A stretch of DNA of 36,834 nt from a virus: positions 1-36,834 of IMG/VR virus record IMGVR_UViG_3300020163_000008. One strand, given 5' to 3'. Shown piece by piece: positions 10,235 to 36,834 of the stretch. How positions within the stretch are numbered: position 1 is the stretch's first letter; every line of letters begins with the position of its first letter. The notes under the pieces were generated by a model. It saw only the letters and a list, made by a program, of their open reading frames with translations. It had not been told where the DNA came from and made no database searches. The translations under genes were made by a program, and so were the position numbers.

Positions 10235-10987
10235 ATGCAAAATAAAACCTTATCAGAAATGCTTAACGATGCCCTTAATTGCCCGGGCAAATTATTAGAG
10301 GTTTACAGCTATTTTCATAATTACAGTTTGTCTAATCAGTTATTGGCAAATTTGCAATTACCTAAAGCCGAGCCTATCAATACTTTTAAAGGCTGGCAGA
10401 AGCTCGGGCGTAATGTAAAGAAAGGCGAAAAGGCTATTGAATTGATGATGCCTAAGGTTGTTAGCAAAGAGGACGAAAAAACCGGCGAAAAAGAAACATT
10501 TATTGCGGGATTTTTTACAAAGCGTGCTTGGTTTGGTTTGTCACAAACGGAAGGCGAAGACTATGCAGAGGCTGCACAAATTCCGAACTGGGACAAAGAC
10601 AAAGCCCTTGCGGAACTTGGCATAGAAATATCGGCTTTCGAGCATACAAACGGCAACGTGCAAGGATATGCTAAAGGCTCACGGGTTGCAGTCTCTCCGA
10701 TTGCAGCATTGCCGCACAAAACTTTATTCCATGAGTTGGCTCATGTTGTTTTGGGACACACAAAAGAAGCTTTAATGAGTGACGACGAGAAAACGGAAAA
10801 AAACATAAAAGAAGTCGAAGCCGAAAGCGTCGCATACATACTTTGCAGCCTTTTAAATCTCCCCGGGGTTGAGTATTGCAGGGGTTATATTCAAAATTGG
10901 CTAAATGGTGGCGTATTACCTGAAAAGTCATCGGCGAAAATTTTCGGAGCGGCAAATAAAATCTTAAACGCAGGAAAGGCGGCATAA
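10235..10987 (+). CDS. ArdC-like antirestriction protein with zinc metallopeptidase domain
   Basis: A 250-residue protein with the two-domain layout of ArdC. The N-terminal ssDNA-binding-type domain (about 1-105) shows the typical YSxxNQLL-like helix, F-x-G-W-x-x-L-G and V-K-K-G-E-K-A-I motifs. The C-terminal zincin domain has HELAH (166-170) and a downstream glutamate helix EVEAESVAYI (193-202) as the probable third zinc ligand. ArdC-type proteins protect incoming DNA from restriction. It is co-directional with and close to the Tas-like gene. Family assignment is confident; the target here is unknown. Confidence 0.88.
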   Translation: MQNKTLSEMLNDALNCPGKLLEVYSYFHNYSLSNQLLANLQLPKAEPINTFKGWQKLGRNVKKGEKAIELMMPKVVSKEDEKTGEKETFIAGFFTKRAWFGLSQTEGEDYAEAAQIPNWDKDKALAELGIEISAFEHTNGNVQGYAKGSRVAVSPIAALPHKTLFHELAHVVLGHTKEALMSDDEKTEKNIKEVEAESVAYILCSLLNLPGVEYCRGYIQNWLNGGVLPEKSSAKIFGAANKILNAGKAA

Positions 10988-11100: not shown

Positions 11101-11940
11101 ATGAAAACCAATTTAGAACAAGAAGCAAAGTTTATAGCGATTAAAAAGCTCGATAAAGATTTAATAGACGCTATGGTAGTAACAACAGTCGACGAGGCAA
11201 GATTCTTAGTCTCAAACTATTACACCATGCAAAATGACCGCATTCGATCATACGGACAAGGCAGGGAGCTATTTAAAGCAGGCGAGCCGCATCAGGTTAT
11301 TTCGTTCCTTGCAGGGCAGTCCGAGATATTGGAAGAGCAAATCAAGAAGGCACTTGATCGCTACACCGACAGCCACCCTATAGGCAAATGGCTTAAATCA
11401 GTTGTGGGCATAGGTCCGGTAATTTCGGCAGGGTTGACTTCAAATCTTGACATTACTAAAGCACCGACAGCAGGGCATTTTTGGAGTTACGCAGGTTTAT
11501 GCCCTGAACAGAAACGAGCCAAAGGGCAGAAAATAAACTGGAATCCGGATTTAAAGCGTTTGCTTTGGTTGCTCGGTGAAAGTTTTGTAAAGGTAAGCGG
11601 CAACGATAAAGCTGTTTACGGCAAGCTTTATGCAGAACGCAAAAAATACGAACAAGCGAAAAATGAAGCAGGCGATTATAAAGAGCAAGCACTTGAGAAA
11701 GTTAAAGTTGTGGGCAAAGATACCGAATCTTACAAGTTTTATTCACAAGGCAAGTTGCCGCCTGCACATATTCACAGGCGAGCTTGCAGATTTGCAACCA
11801 AGATTTTATTAAGCCATCTTCAGGAAGTTTGGTATTGGCATGAGTATAAAAAAGCACCGCCTGCACCATATGTAATGGCACATTGCGGACATGCTCATAA
11901 AATCCCGATCCCGAATAAACCTAGCTTTGTTAAAAATTAA
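11101..11940 (+). CDS. Tas-like RNA-guided protein (Nop / IS110 Transposase_20-like domain, no nuclease)
   Basis: A 279-residue protein. An N-terminal helical/coiled-coil part (1-100) leads into VVGIGPVISAGL (101-112), SYAGLCPEQKRAKG (129-142), a basic helix NPDLKRLLWLLGESF (148-162), YGKLYAERKKYE (173-184) and a final helix HRRACRFATKILLSHL (225-240). This order matches the C-terminal Transposase_20 domain of IS110 transposases, which is related to the Nop domain of box C/D snoRNP proteins. The N-terminal DEDD RuvC-like catalytic domain of IS110 is absent and there is no HNH motif. A striking 18-bp periodic array begins at the stop codon. Together they fit the TIGR-Tas systems, with this as a nuclease-less Tas (TasA type). 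The protein would bind guide RNA and target DNA without cutting. The alternative, an isolated IS110 remnant, is less likely because the domain is intact and the array is ordered. Confidence 0.85.
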   Translation: MKTNLEQEAKFIAIKKLDKDLIDAMVVTTVDEARFLVSNYYTMQNDRIRSYGQGRELFKAGEPHQVISFLAGQSEILEEQIKKALDRYTDSHPIGKWLKSVVGIGPVISAGLTSNLDITKAPTAGHFWSYAGLCPEQKRAKGQKINWNPDLKRLLWLLGESFVKVSGNDKAVYGKLYAERKKYEQAKNEAGDYKEQALEKVKVVGKDTESYKFYSQGKLPPAHIHRRACRFATKILLSHLQEVWYWHEYKKAPPAPYVMAHCGHAHKIPIPNKPSFVKN

Positions 11941-12196
11941 GTCATTTACCGATATAGAATCAAGTACGGGAAACGAGTCAATCTAGATGTTAGAATCATT
12001 GTCAACAAACGAGCCATATCCACGAATAGAAATATTAGCAGTTAGCGAGCCGTACCAATGAATAGAACCACTATTCTAAAGCGAGTCAATAGGAGAGATA
12101 GAACCAGCATTTGAGAACGAGCCAGATTAGCGAATAGAAACATTTCGCATTAGCGAACCAAATAGAGCAATAGAATCATAAAACGTCAGTGAACAA
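11936..12196 (+). repeat. TIGR-like array: alternating 9-bp boxes and 9-bp unique spacers, 36-bp unit
   Basis: Thirteen clear boxes recur every 18 bases from 11954 to 12178. Box A (consensus ATAGAAYCA) begins at 11954, 11990, 12026, 12062, 12098, 12134 and 12170. Box B (consensus ARCGAGYCA) begins at 11972, 12008, 12044, 12080, 12116 and 12152. Degenerate B-like boxes flank the array at 11936 (overlapping the Tas stop codon) and 12188. All spacers between boxes are exactly 9 bases and all differ, e.g. AGTACGGGA, TTGTCAACA, TTAGCAGTT, TTTCGCATT. The 9+9+9+9 unit equals the 36-nt tigRNA length reported for TIGR-Tas. There is no coding frame: a TAG recurs inside every A box. The array is probably co-transcribed with the Tas-like gene; the transcribed strand is not proven. 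Confidence 0.9.
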
Positions 12197-15716: not shown

Positions 15717-15738
15717 AGCCGCCTTTCGGGGCGGCTTT
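15717..15738 (+). terminator. Probable terminator after the first string of early genes
   Basis: AGCCGCC (15717-15723) pairs perfectly with GGCGGCT (15730-15736) across a 6-base loop, followed by a short T stretch and AT-rich sequence. The T tract is weak, so termination may be partial and let some transcription reach the 15762 gene. Confidence 0.5.
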
Positions 15739-36375: not shown

Positions 36376-36834
36376 TCAATTGTACCCGGTAACAAAGGCT
36401 TGCCACAAGTTCGCATCGGAAGCAGTGGTTGCACAGTTAATTGTAAAGGCAATAATAATCGGAGACGCTTCATTTAGAGTCAAAGCAGCTGCAAGCCCTG
36501 CACCGCTATGCGTACCACCGATAACCGTTGCAACTTGTTGGTATGATTGCGTGTTTGAATTTGTTACACCGTATTTGCTGACTTGGGTAGCCAAAGCCCA
36601 ACCTACGCCTGAAGCGGCAGAAACACCGGTTGTGGCAATAGTTGTGCCGCCGACAACCGCAGAGCCGACTACGGCACTGGTTGCACCAATAATAATTTTG
36701 ACGGTTTTGTTATTTACTGTCGCTGCAAAGTTTCCGTTTGCACGAATATCGAGCAAGTCACCTGCCGAGTTTAGAGAGTTTGCAGGCATCGAATAGCTTG
36801 CAACAACTATATCATTTGCACCGGCTGAAGCAGG
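36376..36834 (-). CDS. Virion surface/structural protein, C-terminal part (continues at the left end)
   Basis: This is the 3' part of the 205-residue gene that starts at 306 on the minus strand at the left end. The part seen here is Gly/Ala/Thr/Val-rich with no charged coiled coils, and ends FVTGYN. The frame is uninterrupted across the 126-bp terminal repeat. A methionine at 36787-36789 could be mistaken for a start, but the reading frame continues upstream to the ATG with the good ribosome site. Confidence 0.7.
   Translation of the reverse strand, partial: PASAGANDIVVASYSMPANSLNSAGDLLDIRANGNFAATVNNKTVKIIIGATSAVVGSAVVGGTTIATTGVSAASGVGWALATQVSKYGVTNSNTQSYQQVATVIGGTHSGAGLAAALTLNEASPIIIAFTINCATTASDANLWQAFVTGYN
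36709..36834. repeat. Terminal direct repeat, right copy (126 bp)
   Basis: Exact copy of 22-147. Removing one copy and the 21-base fold-back arm closes the genome into a circle of about 36,687 bp. Confidence 0.95.

What the first reader, a model, noticed from the sequence alone, without database searches (positions are those of the whole stretch)
11936..12196. Strict 9-9-9-9 architecture with two related box types and decayed end boxes
Thirteen boxes fall at exactly 18-bp steps. ATAGAAYCA and ARCGAGYCA alternate and share the skeleton A-N-N-G-A-R-Y-C-A, so the unit is a pseudo-dimer, similar to C/D and C'/D' boxes in snoRNAs. B-like boxes at 11936 and 12188 are degenerate, as terminal repeats of guide arrays often are, and the left one overlaps the protein's stop codon. 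The period excludes coding use, since a TAG lies in every A box.
Basis: seen in the sequence. Interest (0 to 1): 0.85.

Follow-up and report, generated by a model that had tools for sequence, protein, structure and literature searches.

The report
Phage TIGR-TasA dual-spacer guide RNA array
Beside a Nop-domain gene, a virus carries a strip of paired 9-letter guides of the recently described TIGR-Tas type; that kind is known, but its repeats pair with their neighbours copy by copy, which shows what one guide unit is and how such arrays change.

Summary
Thirteen full boxes, plus a half-box at each end, lie at exact 18-bp steps at 11936-12196, far above chance and closed in all six frames. Edge repeat ARCGAGYCA and loop repeat ATAGAAYCA match arrays at 84 related loci, nearly all with the same step.

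New here: bases 6 and 7 of each edge repeat pair with bases 3 and 2 of the NEXT edge repeat, copy by copy (window 14/14; 1,172 units in 74 loci, z about 19-21), not within one repeat. This fixes the unit as mid-edge to mid-edge, the guide strand as +, and explains the 'decayed' ends as half-boxes that keep the half they need. Whole units turn over. TasA is the only protein shared with the nearest relative's 42-kb phage, and no spacer is shared.

No target was found in the phage or its relatives; IMG/VR hits are at chance level. Verdict: new member of a known kind. What TasA does to a bound target remains open.

The parts
11101..11940 (+). tasA: solo Nop-domain protein, 279 aa, no nuclease domain found
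   Evidence: Pfam Transposase_20 3.8e-6; PHROG 4285 3e-46; profile vs PDB: TasR 9mty 1e-44, TasH 21kl 5.7e-25, IS621 5.6e-8; AF2 pLDDT 83.8, all-helical; Foldseek best hits TasR and TasH, 1e-7
11936..12196 (+). [quoted passage not shown]
   Evidence: homologous arrays
11936..11944 (+). 5'-truncated edge repeat (ATTAAGTCA); only its 3' half AAGTCA is repeat-like; overlaps the tasA stop codon
   Evidence: same overlap in L002 at 5312
11972..11980 (+). edge repeat 2 (AACGAGTCA)
12008..12016 (+). edge repeat 3 (AACGAGCCA)
12044..12052 (+). edge repeat 4 (AGCGAGCCG)
12080..12088 (+). edge repeat 5 (AGCGAGTCA)
12116..12124 (+). edge repeat 6 (AACGAGCCA)
12152..12160 (+). edge repeat 7 (AGCGAACCA)
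12188..12196 (+). 3'-truncated edge repeat (AGTGAACAA); its AGT pairs with edge 7 (U-A and G-C)
11954..11962 (+). loop repeat 1 (ATAGAATCA); the others at 11990, 12026, 12062, 12098, 12134, 12170
11945..11953 (+). spacer A of unit 1 (TTTACCGAT); spacer A of later units every 36 bp
11963..11971 (+). spacer B of unit 1 (AGTACGGGA); spacer B of later units every 36 bp
10235..10987 (+). upstream neighbour: ArdC-like anti-restriction protein (context only)
   Evidence: PF08401 7.1e-10; phrog_7245 4.2e-14

Best explanation
A TIGR-TasA system of a tailed phage. The array is transcribed on the + strand, probably with tasA. It is cut inside each edge repeat into seven 36-nt tigRNAs, each with two 9-nt spacers between box C/D-like half repeats. 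In each guide the 3' half of edge n (bases 6 and 7) pairs with the 5' half of edge n+1 (bases 3 and 2), closing the RNA into a pseudo-symmetric figure-eight held by a TasA dimer. The RNP binds double-stranded DNA, spacer A on one strand and spacer B on the other (target read as A followed by the reverse complement of B), and does not cut because TasA has no nuclease. Most likely use: blocking or bending DNA of competing phages or other mobile elements. Shown here: protein family and fold, array anatomy, cross-edge pairing, strand, turnover of whole units, exchange of the cassette between phages. Taken from the published relatives: processing, dimer, target rule. Inferred: inter-element conflict (about 50%). 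The confidence below is for the identity as a TIGR-TasA guide array.
For: Protein. Array. The same kind of dual-repeat array with the 18-bp step is found at 84 related loci among 103 held loci. Cross-edge pairing: window 14/14 Watson-Crick against 8.9 in shuffles, P 0.007; window plus L002 20/20, P 0.0017; 1,172 units in 74 loci, 1126 vs 947.5+-8.6 and 1092 vs 911+-9.7, within-repeat control below expectation; after grouping related arrays and leaving out the window and L002, z 16.9 and 14.8. Strand: wobble pairs 73 G.U against 17 A.C. Unit turnover: a unit shared by two arrays with different neighbours keeps its own half-edge in 374/392 cases against 337/392 for the neighbour's half, Fisher 6e-6. 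Cassette exchange: TasA is the only protein shared between this phage and the 42-kb phage of L002, and the spacers all differ. Published mechanism: PMC12045711.
Against: No target was found for any spacer pair in the phage itself or, above controls, among 1.39 Mb of related phage loci; IMG/VR hits for four tigRNAs are at chance level. No terminator follows the array, unlike the typical published array. The loop repeats of this window lack the 2-7 pair that most relatives keep. Nothing shows expression, processing or DNA binding of this particular system.
Confidence: 0.88

Rival explanations
1. TIGR-TasA used for the phage's own business: RNA-guided regulation of its own genes, or an aid to its own integrase or recombination.
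For: TasA has no nuclease; the TIGR-Tas authors raise regulation and integrase help.
Against: No spacer pair matches the phage's own genome with fewer than 4 mismatches in the A+rcB arrangement, while permuted pairings reach 2-4; no enrichment in the contigs of relatives; spacers are entirely different in the relative with 78% identical TasA.
Confidence: 0.15
2. Counter-defence: guides aimed at host chromosome or host defence genes, in line with the upstream ArdC-like anti-restriction gene.
For: ArdC-like neighbour at 10235-10987; spacer turnover fits varied hosts or plasmid-borne defences.
Against: Host unknown, so untested; a single neighbour in one genome; the L002 phage shares no neighbour gene.
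Confidence: 0.2
3. IS110-family transposase remnant with a bridge-RNA-like repeat array.
For: Pfam and PHROGs call the protein transposase.
Against: No DEDD domain found; TasR and TasH are much closer than IS621 or ISCro4; bridge RNAs are single units, not 7-unit arrays.
Confidence: 0.02
4. Box C/D snoRNA-like RNA-modification guides (RNA target).
For: Shared Nop fold and C/D-like boxes (PMC12045711).
Against: No fibrillarin or L7Ae was noticed among the window genes that were scanned; Tas relatives target DNA and TasR does not cut RNA; naked RNA unstructured.
Confidence: 0.03
5. Chance or coding tandem repeat.
For: 18 is a multiple of 3.
Against: All six frames closed; information and shuffle tests; conserved in many phages.
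Confidence: 0.001

Closest known systems
TIGR-TasA with dual-repeat array (Faure et al. 2025, PMC12045711), e.g. Flavonifractor plautii FpTIGR
   Same: Solo Nop protein; alternating edge and loop repeats of 8-12 nt with 9-nt spacers; truncated edge repeat at both ends; C/D-like box motifs shared by edge and loop; phage location.
   Different: Array starts inside the tasA stop codon and is not followed by its own terminator; edge repeats are polymorphic at two pairs and linked from copy to copy; loop repeat lacks the 2-7 pair.
TIGR-TasR / TasH
   Same: Nop fold (Foldseek 1e-7, profile 1e-44 and 6e-25), dual-spacer guide, pairing between neighbouring edge repeats.
   Different: No RuvC or HNH domain here; TasR repeats start UG and end CCA, here A-R/T at the start and Y-C-A at the end.
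Stem-loop TIGR arrays (Peromyscus gut locus; also seen here upstream of mycobacteriophage TasA)
   Same: TasA, C/D boxes, two spacers of about 9 nt per unit.
   Different: Units closed by long palindromic stems instead of edge repeats.
IS110 / IS621 bridge RNA recombinases
   Same: Nop-like RNA-binding domain (5.6e-8).
   Different: Have a DEDD catalytic domain and a single bridge RNA, move DNA.
Archaeal/eukaryotic box C/D snoRNPs
   Same: Two guides per RNA between C/D-like boxes; Nop fold.
   Different: RNA methylation with fibrillarin and L7Ae, kink-turns, not 36-nt unit arrays.

Membership tests
TIGR-TasA (dual-repeat) | Effector with a Nop (Tas) domain and no nuclease | tested here: met
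TIGR-TasA (dual-repeat) | Adjacent array of two alternating 8-12-nt repeats with about 9-nt spacers | tested here: met
[quoted passage not shown]
   11936 and 12188
TIGR-TasA (dual-repeat) | Rho-independent terminator after the array (typical, not defining) | tested here: not met
   nearest downstream + strand terminator-like site at 15717
TIGR-TasA (dual-repeat) | Base pairing between neighbouring edge repeats of one processed tigRNA (described for TasR) | tested here: met
   (by covariation)
TIGR-TasA (dual-repeat) | Processing to 36-nt tigRNAs bound by Tas | not testable with these tools
   Needs small-RNA sequencing
TIGR-TasA (dual-repeat) | Tandem-spacer DNA target | tested here: inconclusive
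   No target found:
IS110 transposase | N-terminal DEDD/RuvC-like catalytic domain | tested here: not met
CRISPR array | One repeat type of about 25-36 nt with similar-sized spacers | tested here: not met
Box C/D snoRNP | Fibrillarin and L7Ae partners, kink-turns | tested here: inconclusive
   Neither appeared among the window ORFs scanned with PHROGs or Pfam, but not every ORF was scanned; naked RNA fold z +0.87

The most novel reading that the evidence does not exclude
TasA with its array is a nuclease-free, RNA-guided weapon that passes as a cassette between unrelated phages. Its array evolves by swapping whole dual-spacer units at joints inside the edge repeat, each unit carrying its own matching half-repeats. 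This would give the first rule for how TIGR arrays grow and change.
Probability: 0.35. Interest if true: 0.7.

Novelty: new member of a known kind. Interest (0 to 1): 0.42.

Why it matters
The function of nuclease-less TasA, the origin of TIGR spacers and the way the arrays expand are stated open questions in PMC12045711. This locus and its relatives give three handles. The unit of inheritance can be read from the covariation of successive edge repeats. The tasA-array cassette occurs in otherwise unrelated phages with complete replacement of spacers, which speaks against self-regulation. And a data set of 1,172 distinct dual-spacer units in 74 viral loci is now defined for target hunting.

Tried and rejected
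Self-targeting: best A+rcB match in the window has 4 mismatches, permuted pairings reach 2. Targets in related phages: 980 spacer pairs against 1.39 Mb give 0/11/183 hits at 0/1/2 mismatches, against 0/3-11/216-223 for permuted pairs and 0/12/199 for the reversed order. IMG/VR exact scans for tigRNA 1, 5, 3, 7 (gap 0-2): 0, 2, 1, 4 contigs, that is 0, 1, 1, 2 independent sites, taken as chance level. Plasmid collection: no TasA match. Rfam: nothing credible. PADLOC: nothing. Rejected readings: coding repeat, IS110 remnant, CRISPR, kink-turn snoRNA. The apparent hit of a mycobacteriophage spacer pair beside the integrase gene (2 mismatches) has the wrong spacer order for the published geometry and lies in a terminator-like hairpin: rejected.

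Full report
WHAT IS THERE. The window is an IMG/VR virus contig of 36,834 bp with portal, terminase, major head, Erf-like recombination, replication-initiation and spanin genes, i.e. a tailed phage. A contig from another sample (L025) is 100% identical over its 13.7 kb and bridges the two ends of the window over an overlap of about 126 bp, so the genome is probably complete, with repeated ends. At 11936-12196 the sequence shows 13 full 9-nt boxes and a half-box at each end, exactly 18 bp apart. Period-36 information is 36.5 bits against at most 23.6 elsewhere in the window, and the box chain scores 60.7 against at most 8.2 in shuffles. All six frames are closed.

THE PROTEIN. The ORF whose stop codon overlaps the first half-box (11101-11940, 279 aa) matches Pfam Transposase_20 (3.8e-6) and PHROG 4285. 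A profile of 13 relatives finds TasR 9mty at 1e-44, TasH 21kl at 5.7e-25, and IS621/ISCro4 only at 5.6e-8 and 2.7e-7. The AlphaFold model (pLDDT 83.8, pTM 0.80, all-helical) has the TasR and TasH structures as its best PDB matches. No nuclease domain was found. It is therefore a TasA-type solo Nop protein in the nomenclature of PMC12045711.

THE ARRAY IS A TIGR ARRAY. [quoted passage not shown] Here ARCGAGYCA is the edge repeat and ATAGAAYCA the loop repeat, giving seven units. The relative L002 (TasA 78% identical) has three units with the same repeats, the same 18-bp step and the same overlap of the first half-box with the tasA stop codon, but wholly different spacers. A profile scan of IMG/VR found 266 relatives, of which 80 were kept. 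Among 103 held loci, 86 gave a chain with the box model. One of these (L003, minus strand) is weak and was not used, and one is the window itself, which leaves 84 related loci. Nearly all boxes step by 18 bp.

NEIGHBOURING EDGE REPEATS PAIR, COPY BY COPY. Numbering the edge box A1 R2 Y3 G4 A5 R6 Y7 C8 A9, base 7 of edge n pairs with base 2 of edge n+1, and base 6 with base 3. In the window all 14 pairs are Watson-Crick: A-U three times and G-C four times at 7/2; G-C six times and A-U once at 6/3. Shuffling the next edge gives 8.9 on average (P 0.007); with L002 it is 20/20 (P 0.0017). In 1,172 distinct units from 74 loci, 1126 pair at 6/3 (expected 947.5, sd 8.6) and 1092 at 7/2 (expected 911.1, sd 9.7), while the 7/2 test inside one repeat is below expectation. 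Grouping arrays that share any unit and leaving out the window and L002, the z-scores are still 16.9 and 14.8, with 19 of 20 and 20 of 21 informative groups in the same direction. PMC12045711 describes such pairs in the TasR structure and covariation between different arrays; the copy-to-copy linkage inside arrays, and in TasA, is what is added here (I could not read that paper's supplement, so a mention there cannot be excluded). It fixes the unit as mid-edge to mid-edge. Wobbles (73 G.U against 17 A.C; binomial 2e-9, related loci not fully independent) place the RNA on the + strand. It also explains the 'decayed' ends: the first box keeps only its 3' half (AAGTCA) and the last only its 5' half (AGT), which are the halves the first and last guides use.

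EVOLUTION. When a unit is found in two arrays with different neighbours, its own half of the shared edge repeat is the same in 374 of 392 cases, the neighbour's half in 337 of 392 (cases not fully independent). Units therefore appear to be gained, lost and moved whole, with the joint inside the edge repeat. TasA is the only protein shared (tblastn 1e-4, ORFs of 80 aa or more) between this phage and the 41,961-bp phage of L002, so the gene and array appear to travel as a cassette while spacers are replaced.

TARGETS. From the published cut geometry (8-nt 3' overhangs, cut relative to base 5) the target reads A followed by the reverse complement of B (my inference). No such target was found in the window, between the window and the L002 phage, or in 1.39 Mb of related loci above permuted controls. 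Exact scans of IMG/VR for four of the seven guides gave only hits that I take as chance level. The host is unknown and was not searched.

HOW IT MOST LIKELY WORKS. Inferred from relatives: TasA-dependent processing to 36-nt guides, a TasA dimer on one guide, tandem binding of both DNA strands with strong bending and no cleavage. Because spacers turn over completely while the protein and repeats persist, and because no own target was found, a role against other mobile elements is preferred (about 50%), over counter-defence against the host (about 20%; an ArdC-like anti-restriction gene lies just upstream) and over self-regulation or integrase help (about 15%).

LIMITS. The box model was trained on a few relatives, so arrays with different boxes were missed (for example L021, and perhaps L010-L017). 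The related loci are viral metagenome contigs without hosts. No expression data exist. The window's loop repeats do not keep the 2-7 pair seen in 999 of 1,172 units, which is unexplained.

Noticed in passing
L004:2657-2961 (Mycobacterium phage Euphoria), also L119, L120, L121, L122: A TasA relative is found in 74 mycobacteriophage records (annotated transposase or hypothetical protein). In the five read here it has upstream about five stem-loop units of the form stem-CCA-9 nt-CG..CCA-9 nt-CG-stem; stems and boxes are conserved between phages and the 9-nt spacer pairs vary: a stem-type TIGR array in phages with a laboratory host.
   Followed up: partly
window 11954-12178 loop repeats: The loop repeats of this array have T2 fixed and base 7 variable, so the loop pair 2-7 kept in 85% of related units is mostly absent here.
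   Followed up: partly
L057:2345-3991, L064:10793-12278, L076:10793-12352: Very large TIGR arrays of 83-92 boxes (about 41-46 guides) beside TasA in viral contigs.
   Followed up: no
L019:9877-10551: Block duplications of units with slightly changed spacers (e.g. CTTCCGCAA/AAAAGCCTG and CTTCCGCAA/AAGAGCCTG), a trace of array growth by internal duplication.
   Followed up: no
L024:2-837 (Bathyarchaeota MAG): A dual-repeat TIGR array of about 23 units upstream of a Nop protein in an archaeal MAG, with almost the same edge repeat AGCGAGCCA.
   Followed up: no
L010-L017: A set of near-identical viral contigs with a TasA about 50% identical to the window's but no dual-repeat array found by the box model; short palindromes upstream of the gene suggest another array type.
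   Followed up: no
window 10235-10987: ArdC-like anti-restriction protein, possibly with a zincin-like metallopeptidase part, upstream of tasA.
   Followed up: no
window ends (about 1-147 and 36709-36834): The window ends share a repeat of about 126 bp and L025 (another sample) bridges them at 100% identity: the genome is probably complete.
   Followed up: partly
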